Shown here piece by piece: positions 33,769 through 53,548 of a stretch of DNA of 64,000 nucleotides. The stretch lies in contig NZ_JAQQXS010000010.1 of the NCBI RefSeq assembly GCF_028595305.1, positions 1-64,000 of the forward strand. Reading direction: 5' to 3'. Under the pieces are notes generated by a model. That model saw only the letters and a list, made by a program, of their open reading frames with translations. It was not told the DNA's origin and did no database searches. The first letter of the stretch is position 1. Each line of letters begins with the position of its first letter. The DNA is from Roseateles koreensis (GTDB taxonomy: Bacteria; Pseudomonadota; Gammaproteobacteria; Burkholderiales; Burkholderiaceae_C). Both the position numbers and the translations under genes were made by a program.

Positions 33769-36579
33769 TTACGCCCCACCCTCCGCATCGGCTTGCAAAC
33801 CGCTCAGCGCCTCAGCCAACTGGATGATGTGCCCCACATGGACCTCGATTCGCGGTGCCGCCGCCGCCAGCCACTCTCGCGCACGCAGATCGCTATCGCG
33901 CATCAGGTTTTCGCCGTCCAACGCCAGGGCCGCCAGATCTTTGGCGCCCAGGGTCGCCGCCATGCCTTTGAAGGTATGAATCTGCAAAACCGCGCTCTCC
34001 CAATCGTTGGCCACCAGCAGAGCGCCCAGCGTCGCGGGCAATGTCGCCGCGCTGGCGGCGAAGGAGCGTGCGAATCGCTGATACATATCCGTCCGGCCCA
34101 TGAACCGGTCCATGGCGTCCTGCGCATCAATGCCCTGCGCGGCAACTTCCGTCAACAAGGACGCAGGGACTTTGAGCGTCGGCAATTCGAAGAACTCTTC
34201 CACAGGTGTTTCCTTGGCGGTGAGACGCTGAATCACGCGGGCCAAATGTTCGATCTCAAAGGGCTTGCCAACATGCGAGTCCATGCCAGCGCCCAGGCAT
34301 TCGTCCCGGTCGGCTTCCGTGGCGCTGGCCGACATGGCCAGAATAGGCACACGCAAATTCAACTCTCGGCGAATGATGCGCGTTGCCGTGAGCCCATCCA
34401 TGACGGGCATCTGAACATCCATCAAGATGGCATCAAATCCTGCCGGGTCCCGCTGCAGCAACTCGACCGCCTCCCGACCATCAGACGCCAGCTTCACCCA
34501 AGCGCCCATATCTTCTAACAATTCTTTCGCGACCTGCTGATTGTCAAGGTTATCTTCAACCACCAGCAAGCGCAGCTCTTTCAGCAATTGTTCAGTCGAC
34601 GGCAGCTGCTGGAGGACGGCACCACCGCCCGCCTCGCCCAACACACCCGCAACGGCCTCACGCAACATCAACGCCGTTGCCGGTTTGGACAAATACCCGC
34701 TCACCAGTGACGAGCCGGACTCGTCGCGGTGCGCCAACTCTTCCCGACCATGGGCCGTCACCATCATCAAGATCGGCACATCACCCAAAGCCCGGTTGGC
34801 TCGCAGGGCCCGCGCCGTCTCCAGACCATCCATGCCCGCCATATCCCAATCCAGCAGTACCGCGTCGTAACGGGCGCCTTTTTGCGCGAGCGAACTCAAG
34901 CTCGCACACAAGGCATTGCCACTGGCGAAACTCTCAACCTGCCAGCCCAGGCCGCCACCAAGCTTGCTGATCAGTTCACGGGCAAGCGGCTGATCGTCCA
35001 CCACCAACAGCCTCAGTGGCGCAGCCGCCAAAGCATCTTCCGACTGCGCAGCCTGATGTACATCAGCCCCATTGCTGTCGCTGAGTTGGCTGCTTGCATT
35101 GGCTGTGCCGAGGGTGCCAGGTATGGCGATCGTCAACTCAAACGAAAAAACGCTTCCCTGCCCCGGGCAACTTTCAAGCTGCAACTGGCCGCCCATCAAA
35201 GCCACCAGACTTTGACTGATGACCAAGCCCAAGCCAGTGCCCCCGAAGCGGCGGGTGGTGCCGGCTTCCGCCTGTGTGAATCCGGAAAAAATCTTCTCCT
35301 GATGCGCTTGCGCGATACCGATGCCGGTGTCGCGTACCGCAAATTTCAACTGCACGGCATCCGCGCTCACGGTAAGAACCTTGACGCTCACCACCACCTC
35401 CCCTTGATCGGTGAACTTGATGGCGTTGCCAGCCAGATTGACCAACACTTGCTGCAAGCGCAGGGCGTCCAGCATCAACAAATGAGGCAAGGCGGCATCC
35501 ATGTCAAACAGGAGTTCAACCGGCTTGGCGCCAACGTAGGCTGACAAAATGACGCTCAAATCACCAAACACCTGATCAAGCACAACAGGCTGGAGGTCCA
35601 GTGTCATCTTGCCCGCCTCGATCTTAGAGAAATCGAGAATGTCATTGAGCAAGCCCAACAATGAGCGCGCCGCGCCGCGGGTCTTGGTGACGTAGTCATG
35701 CTGACGTGCCGTCAATTCGGTTCGCTGCAATAACTTGAGCATGCCCAGGATGGCATTCATGGGTGTACGGATTTCATGGCTCATATTGGCCAGGAATTGG
35801 CTCTTGGACTGAGACGCTGCTTCAGCCTCCCGCTTGGCCGACATCAGTTCAGTGATGTCATGGAAACTGGCCACCAGTCCGACCACGTCATCGTGCACCC
35901 GCTGCACGCGGGCACGCCGCTCAAACAACTTGCCCGACTTCAGTTTGACAATGGCAAACCCCTCAACACCCTCGTCTCGCGCGGTTGAATCAACATCCGG
36001 CAACACGGGCTCTTGCCCATCCACCTGCGCTTGCAACCAAGCTTTAATGGCATCGCTGTCGCCCAGCATGACCGACTCGGGAATGCCCCACATGGTGCTG
36101 AACTGACGATTCATATTGGCGATCTGACCGGCCACATCTAGCACCAAAATGCCGTCCCAAATCGACTCCAGCGTAGCTTGTAGCTGGGATGACATCTGTT
36201 CAAGCTTGGTCTCGGCCCGGCGCAGGCTTTCACCATCCCGAACCCTGAGCACCAGCAAATCGCCGTCGTCCGAGCGCAAGCGCCGGATGGTCTTCACCAC
36301 CGAAATGGCCAGTCCGTCCCCCCCCACGTACATACTTTCTGCGTCGTCGATGTCCGCTTCACCGCCCCGCTGAACGTCCTCCCAATAAAAGATATCAGCC
36401 AAACCGCTTTCCACATCGGTGATGGCCCGCCCAATCAACGGCACCGCCTCATAGCCCAACATCACCTCGGCTTGCCGGTTGGCCGCCACAATGCATAGGG
36501 AGGTTGGGTCAACCACCAAAAGCATCTCGGCGGTCTGATCCCGCATGACACGGTCGAGCGTGGCGGCATCCCAACTCAT
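33769..36579 (-). CDS. Hybrid sensor histidine kinase (PAS-PAS-HK-REC-REC-Hpt)
   Basis: This 936-residue protein has no membrane segment and is probably cytoplasmic. In order it has PAS (about 10-115), PAS (about 130-245), HisKA with H268 in NMSHEIRTPMNA, HATPase with a GGTGLGLVIS G box, receiver 1 (D577 in LLDWDMAGMDG), receiver 2 (D721 in LMDVQMPVMDG) and a C-terminal Hpt domain with H868 in HTFKGMAATLG. Every phosphorelay residue is present, but no separate output regulator is next to it. It is last in the minus-strand operon and its ATG overlaps the HD-GYP stop by four bases, implying coupled translation. Confidence 0.93.
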   Translation of the reverse strand: MSWDAATLDRVMRDQTAEMLLVVDPTSLCIVAANRQAEVMLGYEAVPLIGRAITDVESGLADIFYWEDVQRGGEADIDDAESMYVGGDGLAISVVKTIRRLRSDDGDLLVLRVRDGESLRRAETKLEQMSSQLQATLESIWDGILVLDVAGQIANMNRQFSTMWGIPESVMLGDSDAIKAWLQAQVDGQEPVLPDVDSTARDEGVEGFAIVKLKSGKLFERRARVQRVHDDVVGLVASFHDITELMSAKREAEAASQSKSQFLANMSHEIRTPMNAILGMLKLLQRTELTARQHDYVTKTRGAARSLLGLLNDILDFSKIEAGKMTLDLQPVVLDQVFGDLSVILSAYVGAKPVELLFDMDAALPHLLMLDALRLQQVLVNLAGNAIKFTDQGEVVVSVKVLTVSADAVQLKFAVRDTGIGIAQAHQEKIFSGFTQAEAGTTRRFGGTGLGLVISQSLVALMGGQLQLESCPGQGSVFSFELTIAIPGTLGTANASSQLSDSNGADVHQAAQSEDALAAAPLRLLVVDDQPLARELISKLGGGLGWQVESFASGNALCASLSSLAQKGARYDAVLLDWDMAGMDGLETARALRANRALGDVPILMMVTAHGREELAHRDESGSSLVSGYLSKPATALMLREAVAGVLGEAGGGAVLQQLPSTEQLLKELRLLVVEDNLDNQQVAKELLEDMGAWVKLASDGREAVELLQRDPAGFDAILMDVQMPVMDGLTATRIIRRELNLRVPILAMSASATEADRDECLGAGMDSHVGKPFEIEHLARVIQRLTAKETPVEEFFELPTLKVPASLLTEVAAQGIDAQDAMDRFMGRTDMYQRFARSFAASAATLPATLGALLVANDWESAVLQIHTFKGMAATLGAKDLAALALDGENLMRDSDLRAREWLAAAAPRIEVHVGHIIQLAEALSGLQADAEGGA

Positions 36580-37862
36580 GCGCCAGCCCCCGCGTCGAAG
36601 TAGTAATTCACCCGTTTGCGCGGTGCCAGATACTCATAGACCGACTGTGGCAACTGGCTCGGCTTGTAAGCCTTGGTGATGTTGATGTCGGGCTCCTCGT
36701 CCAAGTCGAGCATCATGGCTTCGCTCTTGGGGACACCCGCGTCATAAACAATGACCGTAGGTCGCAAGGGACGCTTTGAATTGACGCGCACCACCAACCC
36801 AATGGCGTCGTTGGAGAGTCCCACCAAGGTTCCCGGTGGATACACGCCCATGAACTTGATGAAGGCTTGCAAGAAACGAACATCGAACTGGCTGCGTTGC
36901 TGGGCAAACATGGATGACAAAGCCATGTGCGGCGTCATTGCATTGGCGACCTGAACCGGATTGCACAAATTGTCATAGGCGTTGATCACACAAACCAGGC
37001 GGGCCAACGGATCAATCGCGTCGCCTTTCAGCCGCTTGGGATAGCCCGAGCCGTCATACAACTCATGATGCTGAGCCACGATATTGGCAACAGACACCGG
37101 CAGGCCAATTTTTCGAGCCAGATCAAACCCATATTGAGTGTGCAGTTCCCGGAATTCACGCTCAGCCTTCGTGAGCGGCCCCGTGGCATGGAGGATGCGG
37201 TCCGGCACATCATTCAGGCCGATGTCATGAAAGATCGAAGCCGATCCCACCAGTTTGATCAACTCGGCTGGCATGTTCATTTCTTTGCCCAACACCATGG
37301 CCAGCACCGACACGTTGAGCGAATGGAGATAGACATCTTCGTTCCCCGGCTTGTCGGCCATGACTTGAATGGCAAGATCAGGCGCTCCCAGCAACTCATC
37401 CACCATGCCCGCAATCAATTGAGCCGTGTCAGCCATGGCTTGCTGAGGCTGCGCGTAAATCGATTTATTGACTCCTTTGATCACAGCGGCGGCGTTGGCA
37501 AACGCACGTTCGACTTTTTCAATCTTCTGCCGATGCTCCGCTTGCTTTCGAATGCGCTCTTCCTTGACCGCCATCAACCGCGCCAATTCCGCCTTGGCCG
37601 CCTCACTTTCTTGTGTAGGCACCTGTGGCACCGCGGCAGCCCCCGAAATTTCAGATTTCGCCAGCGGCTTGATATCACTGCGCGCCGGGTCCCAACGAAC
37701 AAGCCCCAGGCCCAAACCCTGGATCGTGGCCAGTTGCTCTTCGGTGCGGATTTTGAAATTGTTGAAGTTGAAGGGATGGTGCATCCAGCCGACATCGAGA
37801 TAGACATACACGCCTACCCGCAATTGATCGACAGAGATTTGATTGGCAACTTCGTTCGACAT
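36576..37862 (-). CDS. HD-GYP domain c-di-GMP phosphodiesterase (DUF3391 N-terminus)
   Basis: This 428-residue cytoplasmic protein would hydrolyse c-di-GMP. An N-terminal DUF3391 domain (about 1-110) includes VDQLRVGVYVYLDVGWMHHPF. The HD-GYP domain (about 165-370) shows FHDIG (H212, D213) and HHELYDGSGYP (265-275), the metal and signature residues, so activity is expected. There is no GGDEF or receiver domain, so control probably comes through DUF3391 or protein partners. It lies 25 bases after the sensor kinase and overlaps the hybrid kinase by ATGA, the tightest couplings of this operon. Confidence 0.92.
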   Translation of the reverse strand: MSNEVANQISVDQLRVGVYVYLDVGWMHHPFNFNNFKIRTEEQLATIQGLGLGLVRWDPARSDIKPLAKSEISGAAAVPQVPTQESEAAKAELARLMAVKEERIRKQAEHRQKIEKVERAFANAAAVIKGVNKSIYAQPQQAMADTAQLIAGMVDELLGAPDLAIQVMADKPGNEDVYLHSLNVSVLAMVLGKEMNMPAELIKLVGSASIFHDIGLNDVPDRILHATGPLTKAEREFRELHTQYGFDLARKIGLPVSVANIVAQHHELYDGSGYPKRLKGDAIDPLARLVCVINAYDNLCNPVQVANAMTPHMALSSMFAQQRSQFDVRFLQAFIKFMGVYPPGTLVGLSNDAIGLVVRVNSKRPLRPTVIVYDAGVPKSEAMMLDLDEEPDINITKAYKPSQLPQSVYEYLAPRKRVNYYFDAGAGA

Positions 37863-37887
37863 ATTGGTTTGACGTTGCGTGTTGTGC

Positions 37888-40158
37888 TCACATCAAAAGA
37901 GAGGCCGGCGAGGTGATGGCGGGCACCTCTATTGTGGGTAGCAACACGCTCACCGTTGTCCCCTGCCCGACTTGACTTTCAAGCTTCAGCTGCCCCCCAT
38001 GCAACTCGACAATCTCCTTGACGATACTCATGCCCAGGCCGGTGCCCGGAATCGCGCCCGATTTGTCGGCGCGATAAAAGCGTTCGGTCACATGTGAAAG
38101 CTCCTCCGCGCTCATGCCAATTCCATGGTCTTGAATCGACAGGCAAACTTGCCCTGGCTCAGGCCACTCAATGCGCAAGACCACGCTCCCGCCTTCGGGA
38201 GAGTACTTGTAGGCATTTGAGAGAAGATTCCGCAAGGTTTGCTGCATCTTGCCTCGGTCCACACGCACGCAGCAATCGTCGCCATCAAGCTGAAGCTGCG
38301 GTGCAGGCCGACCGTCAGGTGGGCGGAAGTCGCCCACCGTCTGCCGCACGAAGTCGATCAGGTCCACATCAACCAGCACGAAATCAGCGCCGCGACGGGC
38401 TTCAATACGTGACAGATCCAGCAACTCATCAAGGATGGCGTTCATGGCAACGCTTTGCCGATGGATACGCCCCAGCATGTCTTGAAGCCGCCCTGGGCTT
38501 GGCGTGCGCATCATGAGCAACTCGGTGAAGCCATGAATGCTGGTCATCGGCGTGCGCAACTCGTGCGCCGCCGTCGACAAGAACTCGCTCTTCATGCGGT
38601 CCACCTCGAAATGGTGGGTGATATCACGCACATGCAGCACCTGCGAAACCTCGTGGCCCTCGCCTCGGTGAAGTGCCAATTCCAGAATACGCATCGGCGG
38701 CCCGGCCACCGTCACCTGCGCCACCGCCCGCGTCAAATCAACAAAATGGAAGGGCCTGGCGGCGCGCTGCGACTGCTTGCCAGCGATAAGCGCCTCAACC
38801 GTCTTTTCGTCATGCGTCAACAGAGCCTGACCGCCGATGCCCGTCAATTTCTCGAATGCGGGGCTGACAAACTGCACCCGGCGTTGATCGTCAAAAGACA
38901 CAAATCCGTCCGGACTTAGGCTAAAAATCGCGTTAAGTTGGCTCGCCTGCGCCTGCAGGCGATCGACCAGATCAGCAACAAGGCACGATAGGTACTCAAT
39001 CTCAGAGGCCTGATCAGCAGAGTCTCGGTCCGCCTTCAAAAGTATGGCGGCTTCCGCGCCCTCCAACACCTGGCGCATAGACGCCATAGCGTTCGAGCGC
39101 GCAGCTAACTCGCTTCTCAAGCGGTCTTCGAGTTGCTGTTGATCGGTCACATCGCGCAGGGCAAGTACCCACCCGGCTGAATGACCGTCGTCGGACAGCA
39201 CCACGGCCAAACTGGCTTCAAGAACTTGCAACGCCCGCCGGGAGGACGAGGACTGCACGCGCCGACCGCGCCAGGGCCCCATCAGGCGCCCATCGTCCAG
39301 CAATGAAGGCAGCAAGGCGCTGAGGGGCTGCCCCAAAATCTCCGCGCTGGTCTTTTCCAGCATGCGACACAAGATCGGGTTGGCGAGCACCACACAGCCA
39401 TCCAGATTGACGGTGGCCACACCATCCGCAATCGCATCCAGCGTCACGGCAGCCTGTGCACGCTCAACCTGCAAGGACACAGCCGCCTTGTTCAATATCT
39501 CAAAAGTCTGGCGGAATTCAAGCGGCGCGGCCTCATCAATCACATGACTCAGATGCCCGCCAGCTTGCCCAAGCTCTTCGCCGAAGGCCTGAATGCGGCC
39601 CAAATTCCCCAGCCAATGCTTCAACGGAAACCAGACAAGAATCACACCGCTGCACAAACCGACAAAGGCCAGCACCATGGCGAACAAAGTCTCACGCCAG
39701 ATGTCTGCGGCGATCCGTTCAACCCCGAAGGTCAAACGCAGCACGCCGTAATCTTTGCCCCCCACCACCACCGTGGCGTTGGCCTCGTCCAATCGATTCC
39801 GAAAACGCTCAATCAGCCAGGCCGGCGCTTCAACCCCCAACCTCTCGTTGGACTTGACCTCCAACAACGCGCCCTTGATGTCGATGAAACGAGCTCGGTT
39901 GAAAATCGGCACAGTAACCAAACGATTCAAGCTGCGCTGAATGCTGTCGTAATCCCCAATCACAGCGGAGTCTGAAATGGCTGGAGTGACCACCGCGAGA
40001 ATCGCCTCGGCCTCTTCTCCCGCCTGATCCAACGTGGTATTTGCGATGTGCGCGACGAACAGGCCAAACCCCACGCCAACGAACAAAAGCATGGCCGAGG
40101 AATACAGCAAAAAGACACGTGCGACGAGTGTCTTGGGAAGCAGCCTGCTCAAATTCAT
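37888..40158 (-). CDS. Membrane sensor histidine kinase with two PAS domains
   Basis: This 756-residue inner-membrane kinase has TM1 at about 12-36, a periplasmic domain of about 120 residues and TM2 at about 157-177. A linker or HAMP-like part (about 180-230) leads to PAS domains at about 235-340 and 405-515. HisKA has H532 in STAAHELRTPMTS, and the HATPase has LRNLLSNAYKYSPEGG and GTGLGMSIVKEI. There is no receiver domain. It lies 20 bases after the PhnD-like binding protein, which may deliver the ligand to its periplasmic domain. Its phosphotransfer target is not obvious; the CheY at 42837 or the receivers of the hybrid kinase are candidates. Confidence 0.92.
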   Translation of the reverse strand: MNLSRLLPKTLVARVFLLYSSAMLLFVGVGFGLFVAHIANTTLDQAGEEAEAILAVVTPAISDSAVIGDYDSIQRSLNRLVTVPIFNRARFIDIKGALLEVKSNERLGVEAPAWLIERFRNRLDEANATVVVGGKDYGVLRLTFGVERIAADIWRETLFAMVLAFVGLCSGVILVWFPLKHWLGNLGRIQAFGEELGQAGGHLSHVIDEAAPLEFRQTFEILNKAAVSLQVERAQAAVTLDAIADGVATVNLDGCVVLANPILCRMLEKTSAEILGQPLSALLPSLLDDGRLMGPWRGRRVQSSSSRRALQVLEASLAVVLSDDGHSAGWVLALRDVTDQQQLEDRLRSELAARSNAMASMRQVLEGAEAAILLKADRDSADQASEIEYLSCLVADLVDRLQAQASQLNAIFSLSPDGFVSFDDQRRVQFVSPAFEKLTGIGGQALLTHDEKTVEALIAGKQSQRAARPFHFVDLTRAVAQVTVAGPPMRILELALHRGEGHEVSQVLHVRDITHHFEVDRMKSEFLSTAAHELRTPMTSIHGFTELLMMRTPSPGRLQDMLGRIHRQSVAMNAILDELLDLSRIEARRGADFVLVDVDLIDFVRQTVGDFRPPDGRPAPQLQLDGDDCCVRVDRGKMQQTLRNLLSNAYKYSPEGGSVVLRIEWPEPGQVCLSIQDHGIGMSAEELSHVTERFYRADKSGAIPGTGLGMSIVKEIVELHGGQLKLESQVGQGTTVSVLLPTIEVPAITSPASLLM

Positions 40159-40178
40159 GGCGCTGGCCCCCCCAGACT

Positions 40179-41057
40179 TCAGCGCACCTGCACGGGCGCG
40201 GTCTGATAAAACCGGCGATAAGACGCGTAGTCTTTGCTGTCTGCCGCGATGAAGTGGATATCTGGCGCCAAGCCGATCAATTGATTGACCTGCGCCAGAA
40301 TCGCCCGGCCATGGGGGTCTTTTTGCATCCCCAAAAATGCACGTGCCACGGCTTCAACCTCCTTTTCAGGGACTTTGGAAGATGCCATCAATGCCAAGTC
40401 AAACATGGGCTCTGACGACCACAGCACGCGAAAGTACTTGTTCTCCCGCTTGGTGTAGGCCTCAACCAATTGAGAATTTGCCCCCACCGCCGTGACCTTA
40501 CCACTGATCAATTGCGCAAATGCGCCGTCCATATTGCCGCCAAAAACCGGGCGCGCATTGATTTTTTGATTCAATAAATAGCCATAAGGCAGTTTGTAAG
40601 CAAGAAATGCCTCAGGCCCCGGAAAGCCGATATCCTTACCCTCCAACTCGGCAACATTGCTGATAGGCGAGTCAGCCAAAACCACCAACTGACCACGCAC
40701 CGCTGGGGTATTGCGCCGCCCAAACACTTTCCAACCCAAAGCCTCTCTGTCGGGGCTGAATAAGTGGTTGGAAAAAACAAATTCCACCTCCTGAGCGAGC
40801 ACATAACTCGTGGTATCGGCCGAGGTTCTTCCAATTTTTAAACTCAGCTTGACGCCACTTTTTTCAGAGACATAAGCCACTATTGGATTCCAATAGGCCG
40901 CCGCAGTCGATATATTCGACTGGTTGACCGGAGAAAAACGATACTCAGCCGCGGCAACCGCCGTCACCGTGAGCCACCCGCAGAACAAACCCACGACGGC
41001 GCGCAAAAGCACCCAACCTGCGCGGAGTTTCTGCCCCGTTTCACACCGATGATTCAT
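40179..41057 (-). CDS. PhnD-like periplasmic substrate-binding protein
   Basis: This 292-residue exported protein has a long signal peptide (hydrophobic core about 17-34, ending TAVAAAEYRF) and a phosphate/phosphonate-type binding fold: YRFSPVNQSN, AAAYWNPIVAYVSEKSGVKLS, ELEGKDIGFPGPEAFLAYKLP and the dimer-lobe block NARPVFGGNMDGAFAQLISGKV. No phosphonate permease or ATPase is nearby, so a sensing rather than transport role is inferred. The ATG at 41057 has GGGAGG eight bases upstream, which decides against the TTG at 41159. It sits between the chemoreceptor and the kinase. Confidence 0.88.
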   Translation of the reverse strand: MNHRCETGQKLRAGWVLLRAVVGLFCGWLTVTAVAAAEYRFSPVNQSNISTAAAYWNPIVAYVSEKSGVKLSLKIGRTSADTTSYVLAQEVEFVFSNHLFSPDREALGWKVFGRRNTPAVRGQLVVLADSPISNVAELEGKDIGFPGPEAFLAYKLPYGYLLNQKINARPVFGGNMDGAFAQLISGKVTAVGANSQLVEAYTKRENKYFRVLWSSEPMFDLALMASSKVPEKEVEAVARAFLGMQKDPHGRAILAQVNQLIGLAPDIHFIAADSKDYASYRRFYQTAPVQVR

Positions 41058-41155
41058 GGTTGAAGCCTCCCTGTCGATGCGGGCATCTGCGGACATATTT
41101 AGATGAGATTGACGCCAAAATTTTGGGCGCACCGGAGATCCGCAGCCTTGAATTT

Positions 41156-42703
41156 TCAAAAAAAATCGACACTGGCAGCCCCCGCTCCCACTGCCGTTGC
41201 AACAGTCGGGCCAGTGAGGTTCATCGACCGCTGCTCTTGAGCACGCGCCACAGCCTGCTGCGCCTCATCCCGGATTCGCTCAACGGCGTCATCGTCCCCT
41301 AAGCGGAAAGCGCTGAGCACTTCGGCCAATTTGGCGGCCTGGATCTGCAACTCGTAGGCCATTTCTCCAGAACGCTCCGCCACATGGACATTTTGTTGGG
41401 TGACCAAGCCCAGTTCACGAACCGAGGAGGTGATCACGTCAATCCCCTGAGCATGTTCGGACGAGTCCGCAGTCAGATTTTCAAACACCTGGCCCACCTG
41501 CTTCACAGAGGCCACCAACTCGCCCATGGCCTTGCCGGCATCATCAGCCAAACGAGTTCCTCGCTCAACGCTTGCAACGGAGGCACCGATCAGTCCCTTG
41601 ATTTCACGTGCGGCTTCCGATGAGCGCTTGGCCAGTGAACGCACTTCAGAGGCCACCACTGCAAAACCCCGGCCTTGCTCCCCCGCACGTGCCGCTTCAA
41701 CGGCCGCATTGAGCGCCAAAATATTGGTCTGAAACGCGATGCTGTCGATCACGCCGATGATGTCGGTGATGCGGCGAGAGGACCCGTCAATCTCCTGCAT
41801 GGCGCTGACCATCTGGCTCACCACGTCGCCACCACGGTTGGCCAAAACGGAGGCTGAATTCGCGTACTCCCGGGCCTCGCGTGACGCGCGGGCGCTTTCT
41901 TGAACAATCACGTTGATCTGCTCCAGACTCATGGCCGAATCAGCCAGGCCTTGGTGGGTGGTGTCGGTACGCGACTTGAGCTCCGCGCTGCTGCCAGACA
42001 TTTCCTGTGCCGCCGAATGCACGCTGAAAATAACTTCTCGCACCTGTTTCAGCGTGTTTGCCATGCGAATTTGCACATCTTTCAGACGTGTGGCGCCGTT
42101 TGATTGAACACGGATGGCATCCATATGCAAGCGCACAGGCCCATCTTTGCCCATGGCGCGCACCAAAAACTCCATCTCGAAACTATCTTGGGTACGCTTG
42201 GCCTGCCTGACGCAATAGGCCGCCATCAGCGCGGTCAAAAAACTGACCATGACGACATCGCTGAGCGCATTGGACATCAGCACCTTCTGCGATGTCAGCG
42301 CCATACCACCGCCATCCCACCAGCCCTGAAACGCCAATCGGGAGCCGATAAACAACAACCCGGCGAAAACCACCGGCCGCCAATTTTCATAGAGCAGTAG
42401 CACGCACAGGCTGACGAACATTCCTTCGTGCGCCACAAAATTTCCGGGATCCAAGTAGACCTCCAAATTACCGGAAACCCCCAACATGGCAGTCAAGATC
42501 AGCGCATTCCAAGGGCCGGGCAACCGTTTCCAAAGCAAACCTATCGCGATAACCACCAAAATTGCCACGGCCATGAGCGCGGTACTCAAGTGCGCAGTCG
42601 TCCAGCCGAGAACAAGCGCATAGACACACTGCATACCCAGTAAGGCAACAACCAAGCGATCTGCTTCGATGGACGACTGGTCGGACCAAGGCGTTTTGAT
42701 CAT
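41156..42703 (-). CDS. Six-TM methyl-accepting chemotaxis protein without periplasmic sensor domain
   Basis: This 515-residue receptor has about six N-terminal hydrophobic segments (17-36, 39-58, 65-83, 91-108, 109-127, 145-165) and no sizeable periplasmic domain, then a signalling domain with tip [20 protein letters not shown]. It may sense through the membrane or through a partner such as the PhnD-like protein encoded 98 bases downstream. The ATG at 42703 (MIKTPW) has GGAG seven bases upstream and is preferred to 42754 and 42763, which lack a site. The C-terminus is SVDFF, resembling the tail of the CheZ-like protein at 46111. Confidence 0.9.
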   Translation of the reverse strand: MIKTPWSDQSSIEADRLVVALLGMQCVYALVLGWTTAHLSTALMAVAILVVIAIGLLWKRLPGPWNALILTAMLGVSGNLEVYLDPGNFVAHEGMFVSLCVLLLYENWRPVVFAGLLFIGSRLAFQGWWDGGGMALTSQKVLMSNALSDVVMVSFLTALMAAYCVRQAKRTQDSFEMEFLVRAMGKDGPVRLHMDAIRVQSNGATRLKDVQIRMANTLKQVREVIFSVHSAAQEMSGSSAELKSRTDTTHQGLADSAMSLEQINVIVQESARASREAREYANSASVLANRGGDVVSQMVSAMQEIDGSSRRITDIIGVIDSIAFQTNILALNAAVEAARAGEQGRGFAVVASEVRSLAKRSSEAAREIKGLIGASVASVERGTRLADDAGKAMGELVASVKQVGQVFENLTADSSEHAQGIDVITSSVRELGLVTQQNVHVAERSGEMAYELQIQAAKLAEVLSAFRLGDDDAVERIRDEAQQAVARAQEQRSMNLTGPTVATAVGAGAASVDFF

Positions 42704-42836
42704 CAAGGCGCTCCAAAATTTGAACTGAGACTGCGATATTGCGATTTCGGCCATGCCGCCCAAAAATTCAGTATCTTGTAGTTAGGTTTATCCATAGTAC
42801 TATTTCGCATCTGCATCAAAGTAGAACGAAAACACC

Positions 42837-43202
42837 ATGAAAAAGATCTTGATTGTCGAAGATCAGTCCGAAATTCGAGAGCTCATCAAAGTGACGCTGG
42901 AGTTCGAAGACTACGAGATCTACGAAGCCTCCAACGGTCCGGACGCGCTGGCCAGCGCCAAACGCGTCACGCCCGATTTGATTCTGCTCGACGTGATGAT
43001 GCCCGGTGGCATGGATGGCACTGAAGTCTGCAAACAGGTCAAGAGCGATTCGAGGCTGAGCCGCACACGCGTGATCATGTTGTCTGCCAAAAGCCAGGTG
43101 GCCGACAAAGCGGCAGGCGTGTCTGCCGGGGCGGACTCTTACCTGACCAAGCCGTTCAGCCCAATGGAATTGCTGAAATCGATCAAAAAAGTGCTGCGCT
43201 GA
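42837..43202 (+). CDS. CheY-like single-domain response regulator
   Basis: This 121-residue receiver domain begins MKKILIVEDQSEIRELIK and has the phosphoacceptor Asp in LLDVMMPGGMDG, Thr/Ser in IMLSAK and Lys in LTKPFSP. It has no output domain. It is divergent from the six-TM chemoreceptor and convergent with cheB, alone on its strand. It is more like receivers of histidine-kinase systems than the CheY encoded beside cheA, so it may serve the kinases of the left arm. The ribosome-binding site is poor. Confidence 0.9.
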   Translation: MKKILIVEDQSEIRELIKVTLEFEDYEIYEASNGPDALASAKRVTPDLILLDVMMPGGMDGTEVCKQVKSDSRLSRTRVIMLSAKSQVADKAAGVSAGADSYLTKPFSPMELLKSIKKVLR

Positions 43203-43301
43203 TCCATTTGCCACCGTCCGTCCATACAAAAGGCGCCGCCAAAGTATTGGGGAAGCTCCGTCCGGTGATTTTTCTTGGACCATGCGCGCCATCCTGACTT
43301 G

Positions 43302-44459: not shown

Positions 44460-44480
44460 GTCCTCAACATTTTCTGTACG

Positions 44481-45014
44481 TTATTTTTTTCCTGACTGAG
44501 CCGGCTGACCGCGCTTCACCCCAACCAGGCCCGTTCTCAAGTCCATGCTGACGTGCCGGGGAACGTTGTCGCCCACGTCCACCCCGTCCAGTTGAAAACC
44601 ATGCTGATCGATCAGGCGCCAAGCCTGCTCGATATTGCGCTCGCCTACATTGAATTTCACTTTAAGGGCGTCCGGGATCGTGTCTGCTCCCCCATATAGA
44701 TGAGCAATAAAGTCACTCGACTTCGCGCCAGAGTTTTGCAGGGCAGACACCAGCGTTTGCACCGCCTCGTCGCCATAGCGGCCGTCCAGCGGTTCATCGA
44801 AATCACGGCGCAAACGACTGGGCAACAAGTAGTGGCACATGCCACCAACATTCAGTTTGGGGTGCCACAGTGTCAAGGCAACACAAGACCCCAGCAGCGT
44901 CTTCAATTGAACATCTTTGCCAAAGTGCAACTGTCCAGGCAGCAGTTGGATCACGGGGCCGGGACCACTTTTCCAACCCACCGTGGCAGAAGGCAAAGAA
45001 AATTTATCAGGCAT
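44481..45014 (-). CDS. cheD: Chemoreceptor glutamine deamidase CheD
   Basis: CheD deamidates receptor glutamines and in some bacteria interacts with CheC-type phosphatases. The 177 residues show the catalytic Cys in TLLGSCVALTLW and His in GGMCHYLLP, plus the conserved KFNVGERNIEQA. A short Lys-rich tail follows. It overlaps the cheR stop by eight bases, so translation is coupled. No CheC gene is present; the CheZ-like protein may be the phosphatase instead. Confidence 0.93.
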   Translation of the reverse strand: MPDKFSLPSATVGWKSGPGPVIQLLPGQLHFGKDVQLKTLLGSCVALTLWHPKLNVGGMCHYLLPSRLRRDFDEPLDGRYGDEAVQTLVSALQNSGAKSSDFIAHLYGGADTIPDALKVKFNVGERNIEQAWRLIDQHGFQLDGVDVGDNVPRHVSMDLRTGLVGVKRGQPAQSGKK

Positions 45015-45813
45015 GTTGATAAATCGCCGGCGCGGCAGCGCGCAAAGGCAACCCCAACCCAGACAAAGATTCCGCGTGTCCCGTGTACAAGACTCCCTCT
45101 GGCTTAAGCTGAGTCAGTACATTGCGAATGATCTGCACTTTGGCATCGCCTTCAAAGTAGATCAAAACATTGCGCAAAAAAATAACGTCAAACATCGGCA
45201 GCTTCGGCAAGGTGTGCAGCAAATTGGCGCACTGAAACTCGACACGCTGCCGCAAAGACCTTTCGATGAGCAGTTGTCCTTCATAAGCACCCTCCCCGCG
45301 CAGACAGAACTTTTTCAGATAGGGTGCCGGAACATTACGGGCACGCTCCATGGAATATAGACCTTGCCGTGCCGTTTCCACCACGCTGGTGGAAAGGTCG
45401 GTGCCGTAAACCCGCCAGGGAATATTCCCCAATTGATCCGCCAGCAACATGGCAATGCTGTAGGCCTCTTCCCCCGAAGATGAGGCTGCGCTCCAGACCA
45501 CCATCCCTTCTCTGTTCACGGCCTGGGCCTGTGAAATTCGACGGGTCAAATCGTCAAAATGCGCAGGCTCTCGAAAGAAATAGGTTTCGTTGGTTGTGAG
45601 CTTGTCAATCAGCATCACCTCAACATGCTTGGGCAACTGCCCTCTGACGAGAACATCGACGAACCGATCCAGATCCGCAATCCCGCTATCAAGCGCCAAG
45701 CGTTGAAGCCGACTGACCACCAAGGCTCGCTTTGATTCCGTCAGGCGTATGCCAGATACCTTGTAGAAGTGCTCGGTAACGGCCAAAAATGACGGGTCAG
45801 AAAGTCCTGCCAT
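45007..45813 (-). CDS. cheR: Chemotaxis protein methyltransferase CheR
   Basis: CheR uses SAM to methylate receptor glutamates. The 268 residues show the N-terminal helical domain (GIRLTESKRALVVSRLQRLA), TNETYFFRE, the SAM-site region WSAASSSGEEAYSIAM and the later motif FDVIFLRNVLIYF. There is no TPR extension. It would act on all three receptors in the window; only the triple-PAS receptor ends in a tethering-type pentapeptide (HFKPF). It is the first gene of cheR-cheD-cheB and divergent from the CheZ-like gene. Confidence 0.95.
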   Translation of the reverse strand: MAGLSDPSFLAVTEHFYKVSGIRLTESKRALVVSRLQRLALDSGIADLDRFVDVLVRGQLPKHVEVMLIDKLTTNETYFFREPAHFDDLTRRISQAQAVNREGMVVWSAASSSGEEAYSIAMLLADQLGNIPWRVYGTDLSTSVVETARQGLYSMERARNVPAPYLKKFCLRGEGAYEGQLLIERSLRQRVEFQCANLLHTLPKLPMFDVIFLRNVLIYFEGDAKVQIIRNVLTQLKPEGVLYTGHAESLSGLGLPLRAAAPAIYQHA

Positions 45814-45989
45814 GATCGATTTGCCCGCCTATTGCCTGTTGGTTGATCTTTGTTCGCCGAACTGACCCGCACAGGAACGAATCTCACAACAACACCGTCG
45901 CCAAACAATCGCTGGGGACACCTATTGCCGACGACTCAATCTCTGCCAACAAGCTTACATCAGATGCGCTTAAGTAAGGCATTAGATAG

Positions 45990-46019: not shown

Positions 46020-46110
46020 AGGCACAAGAAAAGCGATAAGCCAAGACTTGGTAAACCGCTTCATCCGCCGTTCGAAGCCGTTTTGGCATTGCTGCCAGGG
46101 GACAAGATTG

Positions 46111-46851
46111 ATGCGTGAGCGCAGGGACAACCGTGAGATTCAAGCACCGCGCCGACGGCGCATGTTGGCGGTCGCCGATTGGCGCCTGCTGACGACTGGT
46201 TTCATGGTCGCCGCGCTGTTACTCATGCTCTGGCGAGGCGAATGGGTGGGCATGTGTAGCCTGGGTGCGATAGTCTGGCTGATGAAGCGGACTGCCGTGC
46301 GCGCCCCCTCTCCACCCGCCATTTACTCGGCCAACAAACCCGTCAACGCCGGCGACTCAACTCCATCCCCAAATGCCGAAACCTGCCGCTCTTCAATCGA
46401 CGGCAGCCTATTGATGCTGGAGAAAATTGCTCCAGTCTGGTTGAACCAGTTCGACGCCATGAATCAGGTGCTGCAGTTCGGCTCGCATGAGTTGCTGAGC
46501 AGCGTTTCCAGCTTGGATGAAGGGGTCACTCAGATCAAACACCGTCTCGTGGCGCCTGCCACCGAAGCGGACAACGAGACCTTGACCGAACTTGCGAACC
46601 AACTCGAACCCCACTGCATGCAGGCGATGCACGCCTTGCAGTTTGGCGATCGTCTGAGCCAAATGCTCCTGGTGCTCAAAAGTGACGTTCAGCGCTATCT
46701 CCAACAAGCCCCTGCAATGACGCACTGCGGCCCAGCCGATGCTGAACAATGGCTTGACGAGTTGTCCGCACGCTACACCACCGAAGAACAACGGCAAGCA
46801 CATGCAGGGGAATTGAAGGCTCCTAACCCCGAGACTGTTGACTTTTTTTAG
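46111..46851 (+). CDS. Membrane-anchored CheZ-like protein
   Basis: This 246-residue protein has two adjacent membrane segments (about 25-41 and 43-59), a Pro/Ser/Asn-rich linker and a helical cytoplasmic domain. LQFGDRLSQML (176-187) places D180 and Q184 in the DxxxQ spacing used by CheZ for CheY-P dephosphorylation. It ends ETVDFF, like the six-TM chemoreceptor. Classical CheZ is soluble, so anchoring is unusual. The ATG at 46111 has AGGGGA at a good distance; an upstream frame is rejected. It heads the plus-strand unit with CheY, STAS, CheA, receptor and CheW. Function is inferred, not certain. Confidence 0.65.
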   Translation: MRERRDNREIQAPRRRRMLAVADWRLLTTGFMVAALLLMLWRGEWVGMCSLGAIVWLMKRTAVRAPSPPAIYSANKPVNAGDSTPSPNAETCRSSIDGSLLMLEKIAPVWLNQFDAMNQVLQFGSHELLSSVSSLDEGVTQIKHRLVAPATEADNETLTELANQLEPHCMQAMHALQFGDRLSQMLLVLKSDVQRYLQQAPAMTHCGPADAEQWLDELSARYTTEEQRQAHAGELKAPNPETVDFF

Positions 46852-46963: not shown

Positions 46964-47329
46964 ATGAGTAAAACCATTTTGGTCGTCGATGACTCCAGCA
47001 GCTTTCGCATGGTGGTCAAGTTGGCGCTGCAAAAAGCCGGTTACACCGTGATTGAGGCCGCGGACGGTCAAGACGCGCTAACAAAGCTCAATGGGACCAA
47101 GGTCAATCTGATCGTGTGTGACGTCAATATGCCGAACATGGACGGGCTGACCTTCCTAAAGCAGATCAAATCGATGGCGGCCTACAAATTCACACCCGTG
47201 ATCATGCTGACCACCGAGTCACAGGAGGCAAAAAAGGCCGAGGGGCGTGCCGCCGGTGCCAGAGCCTGGGTCACCAAGCCCTTTCAACCCGCGCAACTGG
47301 TGGATGCGGTCAATCGTTTGTGCGTCTGA
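46964..47329 (+). CDS. CheY chemotaxis response regulator
   Basis: This 121-residue receiver begins SKTILVVDDSSSFRMVVKLAL and has the phosphoacceptor Asp in IVCDVNMPNMDG, Thr in IMLTTE and Lys in VTKPFQP. GAGGT lies four bases before the ATG. It is 12 bases upstream of the STAS gene and in one unit with cheA, so it is the likely CheA target and CheZ-like substrate. In the 112 bases before it a CAGCAA/TTGCTG palindrome around four T lies near 46910. Confidence 0.93.
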   Translation: MSKTILVVDDSSSFRMVVKLALQKAGYTVIEAADGQDALTKLNGTKVNLIVCDVNMPNMDGLTFLKQIKSMAAYKFTPVIMLTTESQEAKKAEGRAAGARAWVTKPFQPAQLVDAVNRLCV

Positions 47330-47341
47330 TCGCCACTCATC

Positions 47342-47692
47342 ATGGACACGCAGATGGGCAGCGACACCACCTCCACGGTGTGGAAGCTGGGGGGGGAATT
47401 GACAGTAACTGCCGCAGCTGAAACACAGCTTCGGTGGCTGGAGCAATTGGCAACCCTCAGGGGTCCTCTTGCGCTGGATCTGAGCGCCGTGGAGGACATT
47501 GACAGCGCCGGCCTTCAGTTGCTGGTTGCGCTGCGCCACAGCGTGGGGGCATTGGGGTACGGCCTGACTCTTGAAGCCATCAGCCCTACCGTTCAGTCCG
47601 CATTGGATTGTTATGGCTTGACTGGCGAAATGACCGCACTCCACGCACCGGCTCAAAGCCCCGTCGAAGGGAGCATTCATGTCAATGAGTGA
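47342..47692 (+). CDS. STAS-domain protein (anti-sigma-factor-antagonist-like)
   Basis: This small soluble protein of 116 residues contains a STAS-like core (LALDLSAVEDIDSAGLQLLVALR), with Ser at the position that is phosphorylated in SpoIIAA-type proteins. No partner anti-sigma kinase is encoded nearby. Its 3' end overlaps the cheA start by 14 bases, so the two are translated together. Such STAS proteins accompany CheA in some non-classical chemosensory clusters; the exact role is unknown. Confidence 0.85.
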   Translation: MDTQMGSDTTSTVWKLGGELTVTAAAETQLRWLEQLATLRGPLALDLSAVEDIDSAGLQLLVALRHSVGALGYGLTLEAISPTVQSALDCYGLTGEMTALHAPAQSPVEGSIHVNE

Positions 47693-49895
47693 CGACGATG
47701 CAGAAATACTGGCCACGGCCAGGGCAGGTTTCATTGACGAAGCGCAGGACATGCTTCGCCAGTTCGAAGAAGCCATGCTGGCCCTGGAGGATGCGCCCGA
47801 GGATGCGGAACAGCTCAATGCAGCTTTTCGGGCGGCGCACACGATCAAAGGCACGGCTGGGCTGTTCGGCTTTGATCGGGTCGTCACCTTTACCCATGAG
47901 GCTGAAACGCTGCTGGAAGCCTTGCGATCGGGCCAGCGCCCATTTGATGAGCCCACTGCCGCCGCGTTGCTGGAAAGTCGGGATCAGATTGAGCGCCTGC
48001 TTTCAGAAGTTCATCTCGACGCCTCCGAACCGCAGACCGAAGCTACCGGAGCCGCCTTGGCCGTGCGGCTGCGCGCCCTCTATGGCGGCAGCGCGCCGCC
48101 CGCCGAACCGGCGGCCGATTCAGCGCCGGCCATAACGTCGCAGGATGCCGCCGAGCCGGTGGTGGTCGAGCCCGTTTGGCATCTGTCCATTCGTTTCTTG
48201 AACGACGCTTTGCGCAATGGGTTGGACCCGCTCTCCTTCATGCGCTACCTCAGCAAGCTGGGCGAAGTACGACACATCCGAACGCTCACAACCGCCATTC
48301 CTGCGTTGGAATCCATTGACGCTGAAGCCTGCTATCTTGGATTTGAAGTTCGCTTCAAAACCGAGGTCGGGAAGGAAGAAATCGCCGGAGTCTTTGAATT
48401 TGCAACTGATGACAGTGACGTGCAAATTCTGGCGCCGGATGCCAAGCCCAGCGAGTTCGAAGCGCTGGCGGAGTTGCGTTGCGGCATAGACGCTGTTGCG
48501 CGCGCCGCACTGTATGACTGTTGGCTGGCGCAAGGGCACCACTTCGATCTGCGTGAAGACGTGATTGAGCTGCCGGGAGACTCTGAACCGGTCGCTCTGG
48601 TGATGCCGCGGATCGAGCGGCGCACCGAAGCGCCGGTGGTCGCGGGCGCGAACCGGCGCAGCGGCGAAGGTGATCGCCGGGAAGGTGGCCGAGACCGGCG
48701 GGCCGGCGATGAGACGCGCTTCATTCGGGTGCGGGCGGACAAGCTCGATCACCTTATTGACCTGATCGGCGAGTTGGTGATCGCTGGATCGGGGGCACAG
48801 ATGTTGGCCCATCAAGAGGGCACGGACGTCTTGATGGAAGCCACCCGCCGCGTGGTTGATTTGATGCAAGACACCCGCGATGGCGCACTGGCCTTGCGCA
48901 TGGTGCCCATCGGTGAAACCTTCGGGCGCTTTCAACGCGTGGTGCGCGACATCTCAAAGCAACTGGGCAAAGAGGTGGACTTGGTGGTGTCAGGCGGCGA
49001 TACCGAACTGGACAAGTCGATGGTGGAAAGGCTGGCTGACCCGTTGATGCACCTGGTTCGCAACAGCATGGATCACGGGCTGGAAGCGGCGGCGGATCGC
49101 CTCGCAGCCGGCAAGCCCGTGCAAGGGCGCCTTGCTTTGAATGCATTTCATGAAGCCGGTGCCGTTGTGATCGAGGTCAGTGACGACGGGCGAGGCCTAG
49201 CGCGCGAACGCATCGTGACCAAAGCCATTGAGCGCGAATTGATCAACCCAACGCAGGAGCTCACCGATCACGAGGTGTGGCAACTTATTTTTCTGCCTGG
49301 CTTCTCGACGGCGGAGCAGGTGACCGATCTGTCCGGGCGAGGCGTGGGCATGGACGTGGTGAAACGCAATATCGAATCCTTGCGGGGCACCATCGCACTC
49401 ACCAGCGAGCCGGGTCGGGGCACCCTGACCCAGATCCGCCTGCCCTTGACCCTGGCCATGATCGATGGCTTTCTCACCATGGTCAGCGGCGCGCACTACG
49501 TGTTGCCGCTGTCGGTGGTGGCGGAATGCATTGATGTGCCGGCCGAGCACCGCAAAGACGACCAACGGGTGTCGGGCACCTTCAATTTGCGCGGGGAAGT
49601 ACTGCCTTGGTTGGACCTTGCGCGCTTCTACCAGGTCGAGCCCGATTTCAGCCGCCGGCGCAGCGTGGTGGTGGTGCGTTATGGAGACGAACGTGTGGGG
49701 CTGATCGTGGATCGTCTGATGGGGCAACACCAGACGGTCATCAAACCACTCCCTGAAATATTTGCACATGTGCGCGCCCTAGCGGGCTCGACCATCCTTG
49801 GCTCCGGCGACGTGGCCTTGGTCCTGGATGTACAAGGCTTGATGCGCTCGGCGCAGACGACAAGACACGGCACACGAATGGCGCGACGCGCGTAG
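47679..49895 (+). CDS. cheA: Chemotaxis histidine kinase CheA
   Basis: CheA is the core kinase that phosphorylates CheY and CheB under receptor control. The 738 residues have an Hpt domain with H54 in AAHTIKGTAGLFG, a middle region (about 160-300) for regulator docking, a charged linker (GEGDRREGGRDRRAG), the dimerisation helix region, the HATPase (HLVRNSMDHGLE, GVGMDVVKRNIE) and a CheW-like regulatory domain (about 590-725). All catalytic boxes are present. It starts at 47679 within the STAS gene. A strong GC hairpin lies just after its stop. Confidence 0.95.
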   Translation: MSMSDDDAEILATARAGFIDEAQDMLRQFEEAMLALEDAPEDAEQLNAAFRAAHTIKGTAGLFGFDRVVTFTHEAETLLEALRSGQRPFDEPTAAALLESRDQIERLLSEVHLDASEPQTEATGAALAVRLRALYGGSAPPAEPAADSAPAITSQDAAEPVVVEPVWHLSIRFLNDALRNGLDPLSFMRYLSKLGEVRHIRTLTTAIPALESIDAEACYLGFEVRFKTEVGKEEIAGVFEFATDDSDVQILAPDAKPSEFEALAELRCGIDAVARAALYDCWLAQGHHFDLREDVIELPGDSEPVALVMPRIERRTEAPVVAGANRRSGEGDRREGGRDRRAGDETRFIRVRADKLDHLIDLIGELVIAGSGAQMLAHQEGTDVLMEATRRVVDLMQDTRDGALALRMVPIGETFGRFQRVVRDISKQLGKEVDLVVSGGDTELDKSMVERLADPLMHLVRNSMDHGLEAAADRLAAGKPVQGRLALNAFHEAGAVVIEVSDDGRGLARERIVTKAIERELINPTQELTDHEVWQLIFLPGFSTAEQVTDLSGRGVGMDVVKRNIESLRGTIALTSEPGRGTLTQIRLPLTLAMIDGFLTMVSGAHYVLPLSVVAECIDVPAEHRKDDQRVSGTFNLRGEVLPWLDLARFYQVEPDFSRRRSVVVVRYGDERVGLIVDRLMGQHQTVIKPLPEIFAHVRALAGSTILGSGDVALVLDVQGLMRSAQTTRHGTRMARRA

Positions 49896-49903
49896 CACGT
49901 CAT

Positions 49904-49927: not shown

Positions 49928-49995
49928 TGCGCTCGGCACGCCACGAGTCGTGATTGATTTTGACGCGAGAAGACAGCACTGCTCAAGGAGAAGAC

Positions 49996-52900: not shown

Positions 52901-53001
52901 GCGTCGGCAAGACTTCGCCTCCCGCCTGGAGCGCCCCAAAAGCCGGCAGCAAGTCAAGTGGCGGCGATGAGGTGGACGAAAGCCACTTCAAGCCCTTCTG
53001 A
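49996..53001 (+). CDS. Methyl-accepting chemotaxis protein with 4HB sensor and three tandem PAS domains
   Basis: This 1001-residue receptor is about twice the usual size. TM1 (about 13-35) and TM2 (about 190-210) flank a four-helix-bundle periplasmic domain; HAMP follows to about 265. Three PAS repeats of exactly 131 residues (393 bases; repeat starts at 50815, 51208, 51601) come next, each beginning NARIKQALD and including GTVVEW. The signalling domain has tip [20 protein letters not shown]. The C-terminal pentapeptide HFKPF fits a CheR/CheB tether (aromatic at positions 2 and 5). AAGGAG precedes the ATG at 49996 by five bases. PAS domains suggest redox or small-molecule sensing in the cytoplasm. 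Confidence 0.93.
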
Positions 53002-53011
53002 GGGGCCTGCC

Positions 53012-53548
53012 ATGGCACTCAAAGGAGATGCGCACACCCCTGAGTCGGGGCAAGCTAGGCAACTGTTACGCCTGGCCTGTGCTGGAGAAGACATGGTCAT
53101 TCCCGTGGAGGCGGTGCGGGAGATTCTTGAAATGGCACGCCTGACGCCGATTCCGCAGTCGCCAGACTTTGTGATGGGTGTGATGAATTTGCGGGGCGCC
53201 GTGGTGCCCGTGATTGACTTGAGCGCACGGTTCGATCGAGGGCGTTCACCGATAGGTCGTCGCACCGCCATCGTGATTGTTGAAATCATTGCCATGGACG
53301 GCAGCAAAGCGCGCTTCACCGCCGGCCTGTTGGTGGATGCCGTCTACGAGGTGCTGGAGGTGCCCGCGCAAAGCATCGAAGTCGTGCCAAGCATGGGCGT
53401 TTCTGTGGCGCGTGAATTTGTGCAGGGCATGCTCAACGTAAACGGCACCCATGCGCTCCTGCTCAACCTCCAACAGATTTTGGCTACCGACAAATTAACC
53501 GACATGATTCGCGTCCATCACCAAGTCGAAGAACCCAACGTGGCCTGA
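53012..53548 (+). CDS. cheW: Chemotaxis coupling protein CheW
   Basis: CheW links receptors to CheA. The 178 residues contain the fold hallmarks [38 protein letters not shown] and [11 protein letters not shown]. The ATG at 53012 lies ten bases after the receptor stop, so it belongs to the same unit; the long upstream open frame overlaps the receptor and is rejected. It is the last gene of the cluster. A second CheW is not present. Confidence 0.93.

What the first reader, a model, noticed from the sequence alone, without database searches (positions are those of the whole stretch)
33769..42703. Five-gene sensory operon joining a chemoreceptor, a solute-binding protein, two histidine kinases and an HD-GYP phosphodiesterase
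The sequence shows, on one strand with gaps of 98, 20 and 25 bases and one 4-base overlap, a six-TM receptor lacking a periplasmic domain, a PhnD-like binding protein without any permease or ATPase, a membrane PAS kinase, an HD-GYP protein with intact catalytic motifs and a hybrid kinase ending in two receivers and Hpt. The inference is that one periplasmic ligand feeds both chemosensory and phosphorelay outputs and lowers c-di-GMP. I know of no described system with this exact gene set.
Basis: partly seen in the sequence, partly recalled or inferred. Interest (0 to 1): 0.75.

Follow-up and report, generated by a model that had tools for sequence, protein, structure and literature searches.

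The report
Composite sensory operon beside chemotaxis cluster
Five sensory genes that look like one integrated signalling operon are three separately travelling gene modules that came together beside a chemotaxis cluster in one bacterium, and looking at them exposed a short protein tail that may act as a plug shared by a chemoreceptor, a phosphatase-like protein and a c-di-GMP enzyme.

Summary
The five genes, their strand and gaps are as described. Missed: they abut a chemosensory cluster (CheR, CheD, CheB on the same strand; CheY, STAS, CheA, a receptor and CheW divergent). The five-gene set occurs in 1 of 18 genomes of the window's genus (Paucibacter, inferred). It is a juxtaposition of three modules: (1) a six-TM chemoreceptor of the che cluster, with no PhnD-like gene beside it in nine other genomes; (2) a PhnD-like protein plus membrane PAS kinase, an AioX/AioS- or ArrX/ArrS-like sensing pair whose oxyanion pocket residues are replaced; (3) an HD-GYP/hybrid-kinase pair that stands alone in three relatives. 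'One ligand feeds both outputs' is unsupported. The HD-GYP's catalytic residues are not intact (Lys225 to Leu, metal ligand Asp305 to Asn, PmGH numbering), so 'lowers c-di-GMP' is doubtful. The most novel lead is the receptor's tail: [VI][DE][FY]F ends 14 of 14 che-linked receptors read and 12 of 12 CheZ-like proteins read beside CheY (one with an extra residue), and a variant ends a diguanylate cyclase in 16 of 16 genomes searched. A shared docking motif, perhaps for CheY-type receivers, is proposed, untested.

The parts
41156..42703 (-). Six-TM chemoreceptor (MCP6) ending in SVDFF; module 1, belongs to the che cluster
   Evidence: Pfam MCPsignal E 2.7e-47; 13-sequence alignment with invariant final FF; hydropathy
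40179..41057 (-). PhnD-like periplasmic binding protein; module 2
   Evidence: Pfam Phosphonate-bd E 1.7e-34; profile hits ArrX 8.3e-14, PhnD 2.3e-7, AioX 6.9e-7
37888..40158 (-). Membrane PAS histidine kinase, two hydrophobic segments (residues 15-33, 157-175); module 2, partner of the binding protein
   Evidence: Pfam; hydropathy; adjacent to the binding protein in relatives
36576..37862 (-). DUF3391-HD-GYP protein with altered active-site residues; module 3
   Evidence: Pfam; alignment to PmGH
33769..36579 (-). Hybrid kinase PAS-PAS-HisKA-HATPase-REC-REC-Hpt without hydrophobic segment; module 3, overlaps the HD-GYP gene by 4 bases
   Evidence: Pfam; hydropathy; HD-GYP plus this kinase stand alone in L163, L273, L274
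42837..43202 (+). Lone receiver-domain response regulator, divergent from the receptor; candidate partner of the kinase
   Evidence: Pfam Response_reg; homologues (49% and 46%) directly after the kinase in L033 and L069
43302..44459 (-). CheB
   Evidence: Pfam CheB_methylest E 3.3e-64
44481..45014 (-). CheD
   Evidence: Pfam CheD E 6.6e-21
45007..45813 (-). CheR
   Evidence: Pfam CheR E 1.5e-50
46048..46851 (+). CheZ-like helical protein (X) with a DRxxQ motif, ending in TVDFF; true start may lie downstream
   Evidence: No Pfam hit; 11-sequence alignment A1 with invariant D154, R155, Q158, F220
46964..47329 (+). CheY
   Evidence: Pfam Response_reg; 82-87% identical in relatives
47342..47692 (+). 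STAS-domain protein
   Evidence: Pfam STAS_2
47679..49895 (+). CheA
   Evidence: Pfam
49954..53001 (+). Chemoreceptor with four-helix bundle and PAS domains, ending in HFKPF
   Evidence: Pfam; ORF
52832..53548 (+). CheW (true start probably downstream of the ORF start)
   Evidence: Pfam CheW

Best explanation
The five genes are a lineage-specific tandem of three independently conserved modules at the end of a chemosensory cluster. Module 1 is the cluster's own six-TM receptor, which signals to CheA/CheW with no input from the binding protein. Module 2 is an AioXS/ArrXS-like pair: the PhnD-like protein binds an unknown ligand in the periplasm, docks on the roughly 120-residue periplasmic domain of the PAS kinase and changes its autophosphorylation; the phosphoryl group most likely goes to a separate receiver, the best candidate being the lone regulator at 42837-43202. 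Module 3 is an overlapping HD-GYP and cytoplasmic hybrid kinase with its own PAS inputs; the HD-GYP is a weak, conditional or non-catalytic c-di-GMP protein rather than a plain phosphodiesterase. Co-transcription in this species may co-express the three, but nothing shows a shared ligand. Shown: gene order, domains, separate occurrence of the modules, residue changes. Inferred: docking, phosphotransfer route, loss or weakening of catalysis.
For: Genus matrix, 18 genomes: PhnD-like orthologue in 10, che-linked receptor in 8, both in 4, receptor alone in 4, PhnD-like alone in 6, HD-GYP orthologue in 4, all five genes together in 1. In G303 (one contig) HD-GYP-hybrid kinase lie at 0.60 Mb and the receptor at 3.41 Mb, with no PhnD-like match; in G309 they lie on another contig than receptor-PhnD-kinase. 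Receptor directly after CheB and the lone receiver with no PhnD-like gene beside it in G302, G303, G305, G313, G335, G541, G665, G456, G538. Binding protein followed by a transducer in 82 of 83 readable loci. ArrX, PhnD and AioX as nearest solved relatives. Lone receiver homologue directly after the kinase in L033 and L069; in the MAG contig L132 (same record as L065) the che cluster is missing while receiver-PhnD-kinase remain.
Against: Spacing of 98, 20, 25 and -4 bases fits one transcript, and receptor-PhnD-kinase recurs in order in four other loci (L063, L125, L129, L131), which could mean a selected link. Genome-wide absence of a PhnD-like orthologue was tested only for the four genus genomes of the nine, and two of those (G302, G305) hold a distant relative at 24-27% identity. 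HD-GYP genes occur within the fetched flanks of 13 of 79 PhnD loci, and in L099 PhnD, kinase, hybrid kinase and an HD-GYP lie in series, so a c-di-GMP link of the PhnD module is plausible; eight more distant PhnD-like proteins sit directly before proteins with GGDEF or GGDEF-EAL motifs (by motif only). No expression or binding data.
Confidence: 0.8

Rival explanations
1. One reading: one periplasmic ligand, bound by the PhnD-like protein, feeds the receptor, the phosphorelay and the HD-GYP as one system.
For: Tight spacing; receptor-PhnD-kinase order in four other loci; a receptor gene next to aioXSR is described in Agrobacterium (PMC5335332), though there the receptor binds arsenite itself.
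Against: Receptor with no PhnD-like gene beside it in nine genomes, PhnD-like gene without the receptor directly upstream in 80 of 84 readable loci, HD-GYP pair unlinked in three relatives; the receptor shows no periplasmic domain.
Confidence: 0.1
2. The HD-GYP is an active phosphodiesterase that the hybrid kinase controls, so the operon does lower c-di-GMP.
For: HD, HHE and GYP motifs present; PmGH D305A and E185A keep some activity (PMC4159591 passages).
Against: Lys225 is Leu here and K225A abolished PmGH activity (PMC4159591 passages); Asp305 is Asn in all 35 rows aligned; the DUF3391 protein VC2497 was inactive in all assays used (PMC4212101 passages).
Confidence: 0.3
3. The [VI][DE]FF tail is not a docking motif for receivers but a CheR/CheB-type tether or a localisation or degradation tag.
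For: C-terminal pentapeptides that bind CheR and CheB are known in receptors (PMC7390727 passages).
Against: It lacks the predominant Trp (or another aromatic residue) at position 2 of the pentapeptide; the receptor encoded just before CheW ends in F-K-[RP]-F, which has an aromatic there; the tail also sits on a non-receptor protein and on a diguanylate cyclase.
Confidence: 0.35

Closest known systems
AioXSR / ArxXSR / ArrXSR three-component systems (PhnD-like sensor, kinase, regulator)
   Same: PhnD-family binding protein used for sensing and encoded with a kinase (PMC5908839: outline, first part of Results and passages)
   Different: No AtoC- or CitB-type regulator and no arsenic enzyme among the genes annotated here; the two pocket serines and the histidine of ArrX align to Ala, Leu/Val and Met
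mcp next to aioXSR in Agrobacterium tumefaciens GW4
   Same: A chemoreceptor gene beside a PhnD-like sensor and kinase operon (PMC5335332: abstract and passages)
   Different: There the receptor is controlled by AioR and binds arsenite itself; here the receptor belongs to a che cluster and is a six-TM type
DUF3391 HD-GYP proteins such as VC2497 of Vibrio cholerae
   Same: Same domain pair (PMC4212101 passages)
   Different: Encoded with a hybrid kinase; activity untested here
CheZ phosphatase (C-terminal CheY-binding region)
   Same: DxxxQ motif and a variable stretch ending in a conserved hydrophobic-acidic peptide (CheZ layout from PMC7750401 passages)
   Different: No Pfam CheZ hit, no profile-profile match, different tail sequence, hydrophobic N-terminal stretch in some members

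Membership tests
AioX/ArrX sensing binding proteins | PhnD-type family | tested here: met
   ArrX E 8.3e-14, AioX E 6.9e-7 with profile A3
AioX/ArrX sensing binding proteins | Kinase next door | tested here: met
AioX/ArrX sensing binding proteins | Pocket residues Ser161, Ser163, His192 (AioX numbering) | tested here: not met
   Ala, Leu/Val and Met in the alignment to ArrX; residues from PMC5908839; the mapping of ArrX to AioX numbers is mine
AioX/ArrX sensing binding proteins | Adjacent DNA-binding regulator and arsenic enzyme | tested here: not met
   None among the genes annotated at 33769-53548; only a lone receiver at 42837-43202. Genes further out were not all annotated
HD-GYP c-di-GMP phosphodiesterase | HD, HHE and GYP motifs | tested here: met
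HD-GYP c-di-GMP phosphodiesterase | All metal ligands and Lys225 of PmGH | tested here: not met
   Lys225 to Leu, Asp305 to Asn, Glu185 to Asp; the other six ligands are kept
HD-GYP c-di-GMP phosphodiesterase | Hydrolysis of c-di-GMP | not testable with these tools
   Needs purified protein
Chemoreceptor (MCP) | MCP signalling domain | tested here: met
   MCPsignal E 2.7e-47
Receptors with a CheR/CheB pentapeptide | Trp predominant at position 2 and Phe at position 5 of the last five residues | tested here: not met
   Val or Ile at position 2 in 13 of 13 orthologues; consensus from PMC7390727 passages
CheZ (protein X, 46048-46851) | Similarity to Pfam CheZ | tested here: not met
   CheZ not among the hits of 11 members scanned nor of the window ORF; hhalign to CheZ E 0.83, probability 0.05%
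CheZ (protein X, 46048-46851) | DxxxQ catalytic motif | tested here: met
   Asp154 and Gln158 invariant in 11 of 11; a likely relative in L225 has AxxFQDxxxQ in register with CheZ
CheZ (protein X, 46048-46851) | Helical hairpin dimer | tested here: inconclusive
   Two long helices in a single-sequence model of mean pLDDT 57; no fold match at E 0.001 or better

The most novel reading that the evidence does not exclude
A C-terminal peptide [VIM][DE][FLY]F is a shared docking plug, probably for CheY-type receivers, worn by three unrelated partners of one signalling network in Burkholderiales: a CheZ-like protein encoded beside cheY, a six-TM chemoreceptor encoded beside a lone receiver, and a diguanylate cyclase. 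It would let one receiver be captured at a receptor, dephosphorylated by the CheZ-like protein, or used to steer c-di-GMP synthesis.
Probability: 0.4. Interest if true: 0.75.

Novelty: new variant of a known kind. Interest (0 to 1): 0.45.

Why it matters
It warns against reading a tight five-gene operon as one pathway: close relatives show the modules living apart. It adds a family of sensory PhnD-like proteins whose pocket differs from the known arsenic sensors, so their ligand is open. The shared tail, if it docks a receiver, gives a simple and testable way by which chemotaxis, dephosphorylation and c-di-GMP synthesis are tied together.

Tried and rejected
Phosphonate uptake as the role of the PhnD-like protein: held unlikely because transducers are its next genes in 82 of 83 readable loci. 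A crude ABC-signature regex hit some ORF within six genes in 18 of 87 loci; these were not annotated and no PhnC or PhnE model was searched. Decay of the HD-GYP in this strain only: rejected, Asn305 is shared by all 35 rows aligned. Protein X as a plain CheZ: not supported by Pfam, PDB profile search or profile-profile comparison; the fold search used a poor model and says little. The tail as exclusive to two gene families: true of the window's own genome for the strict pattern (three sites, one of them TGG and so no stop; reversed control one) but not elsewhere. In 10 relatives a slightly wider pattern gave 53 sites against 37 for the reversed control. Of 34 sites read, 15 had a called ORF ending in it: 6 protein X, 4 receptor orthologues, 3 diguanylate cyclases, 1 other receptor, 1 unrelated 155-aa protein; 19 sites were not read one by one. 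In G304 (L227) no X-like motif or tail was found in the 15 kb read that include cheY and cheA. A paper search with four terms of the gene set found no paper, and a wider one gave 14 papers of which I saw only the listing; both cover the held library alone. sought CheZ and pentapeptide papers; no search was made for the tail sequence itself. Promoter and terminator scans of the operon found no more sites than shuffles.
Full report
What is there. They end a larger group: CheR, CheD and CheB precede them on the same strand, a lone receiver gene runs the other way between CheB and the receptor, and a helical protein X, CheY, STAS, CheA, a PAS-bearing receptor and CheW run divergently.

Conservation of the set. 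Of the 18 genomes of the genus searched, 10 hold the PhnD-like orthologue at 64% identity or more (12 had a match, two of them only distant ones). Eight hold the receptor beside the che cluster (G000, G302, G303, G305, G307, G309, G312, G313), 4 hold the HD-GYP orthologue (the three others at 74%), and one, the window's own, holds all five together. Receptor and PhnD-like gene occur together in four, the receptor alone in four, the PhnD-like gene alone in six, neither in four. Two of the 10 genomes with a match (G306, G315) have six-TM receptors away from the che cluster (L277, L276) and are not counted. Two genomes, G310 and G315, are under 80% complete.

Module 1, the receptor. Its orthologue follows CheB and the lone receiver in five genomes of two other genera with no PhnD-like gene beside it (L180, L211, L214, L215, L221), and in L063 with one. 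Whether those five genomes hold a PhnD-like gene elsewhere was not searched. Looser six-TM relatives were found in 88 of 399 family genomes. A2 aligns 13 orthologues.

Module 2, the PhnD-like protein and kinase. I read the neighbours in 88 loci (20 from unnamed order genomes, 59, 9 from the genus; several are the same genome twice). One was not called and four ended at the gene; in 82 of the remaining 83 the next gene is similar to the kinases or has GGDEF/EAL motifs; the exception is L040, where a 109-aa ORF precedes a kinase. The upstream gene could be read in 84 loci and is the receptor in 4. ORFs and motifs come from a simple codon-score and regex script, which also gave false GGDEF flags (a PilB, for one), so single calls may err. 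The nearest solved proteins are ArrX, PhnD and AioX. In the ArrX alignment the two serines and the histidine of the oxyanion site are replaced, so a ligand other than a phosphate-like oxyanion is likely (inference). AioX feeds AioS (PMC5908839; outline, first part of Results and passages), and a receptor gene beside aioXSR drives arsenite taxis in Agrobacterium (PMC5335332; abstract and passages). In L033 and L069 a lone receiver similar to the window's follows the kinase.

Module 3, HD-GYP and hybrid kinase. In L163, L273 and L274, all genus genomes, the pair stands alone with 73% and 53-55% identity. More distant HD-GYP relatives are in eight of the loci followed by another kinase (L164-L167, L170, L171, L174, L178). 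Against PmGH, Lys225 is Leu, Asp305 is Asn and Glu185 is Asp; Asn305 is present in all 35 rows (window plus 34, one gene twice), while Lys225 and Glu185 vary among them. In PmGH, K225A abolished activity while D305A and E185A reduced it (PMC4159591, passages). VC2497, a DUF3391 protein, was inactive in all assays used (PMC4212101, passages). PA4108, an active enzyme, has Asp where Bd1817 has Asn265 (PMC3774798, passages); that this is the 305 position is my inference. Activity here is therefore open and rather doubtful.

The tail. The receptor ends SVDFF and protein X at 46048-46851 ends TVDFF. In the own genome a DNA pattern for [VIM][DE]FF plus TRR hits these two genes and one site that reads TGG (reversed control 1). 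All 14 che-linked receptors read (13 and L275) and all 12 X proteins read (11, L311) carry [VI][DE][FY]F; L231 has one extra Asp. X was absent in one of 13 clusters whose region before cheY was read (G304, L227), a genome that also lacks the receptor. Ten of ten other six-TM receptors read lack the tail. Among 1881 called ORFs in the fetched loci, 23 have the tail, 13 receptors and 10 X proteins; the loci were chosen around these genes, so this is no random sample. Genome scans of ten relatives brought up a GGDEF protein ending GSVDFF in three genomes of one genus, and one more receptor, in G541. An orthologue of that GGDEF protein exists in 16 of 16 genomes that I chose to search; of 19 ORFs read, 16 end in [VIM]ELF, the window genome's in SAVELF, and 3 in VDFF. 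With the wider motif, 43 of 1830 distinct ORFs match: 13 receptor orthologues, 1 other receptor, 9 X, 19 GGDEF proteins and one X-like protein; 18 of the GGDEF proteins come from loci fetched for that protein and one receptor (L315) from a locus fetched for the tail. Two were not sought: a GGDEF protein ending SVDLF directly after PhnD-kinase-receiver in L069, and a 153-aa protein in L225, next to a 120-aa receiver-like gene and cheA, that ends SVELF and carries AxxFQDxxxQ, the CheZ signature (motif from PMC7750401, passages). That protein matches the X profile weakly (hhalign E 0.0012 for one comparison, probability 19%) and lies in register with CheZ at the motif (E 0.08, probability 0.7%).

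Reading. The tail sits at the end of an otherwise variable linker on unrelated proteins, two of which are encoded next to CheY-type receivers; a receiver-binding plug like the C-terminal region of CheZ is the likeliest single explanation, but no binding was tested. Results against it: X is not recognisably CheZ by Pfam, profile or fold search; X keeps the tail in genomes without the receptor (G300, G301), so the partner is not specific to the receptor; the pattern also turns up on one unrelated protein, and the excess of pattern sites over the reversed control is modest (53 to 37); the [VIM]ELF and [VI][DE]FF forms may be different motifs, although paralogous cyclases carry one or the other at the same place.

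Verdict. The five-gene operon is a new arrangement of known kinds of module and not a conserved system; the shared tail is the lead worth following.

Noticed in passing
window 41156-42703 (-) and 46048-46851 (+): Receptor and CheZ-like protein share the C-terminal VDFF; a diguanylate cyclase elsewhere in the genome (G000:C12:291799-292824) ends in SAVELF.
   Followed up: partly
L124 15690-19588 and similar ORFs in other Paucibacter loci: In L124 the che and PhnD-kinase genes sit upstream of pilB, pilC and prepilin peptidase genes (Pfam); ORFs of about the same size and ends follow in L125, L126, L128-L131, L212, L213, L216 and L275. The window has other genes there.
   Followed up: no
L132 (same record as L065): The che cluster is missing between its usual flanks while the lone receiver, PhnD-like gene and kinase remain; a MAG contig, so misassembly is possible.
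   Followed up: no
L037, L041, L044, L045, L046, L048, L100, L103: PhnD-like proteins directly upstream of proteins with GGDEF or GGDEF-EAL motifs (by regex), as if the sensor could be wired straight to c-di-GMP turnover.
   Followed up: no
L180, L214, L228: Very long hybrid kinases (1621 to 1957 aa) lie beside the che cluster in other genera.
   Followed up: no
window 26021-27919 (+): Fused Methyltransf_30 and FAD-dependent oxidoreductase domains, MnmC-like by recall.
   Followed up: no
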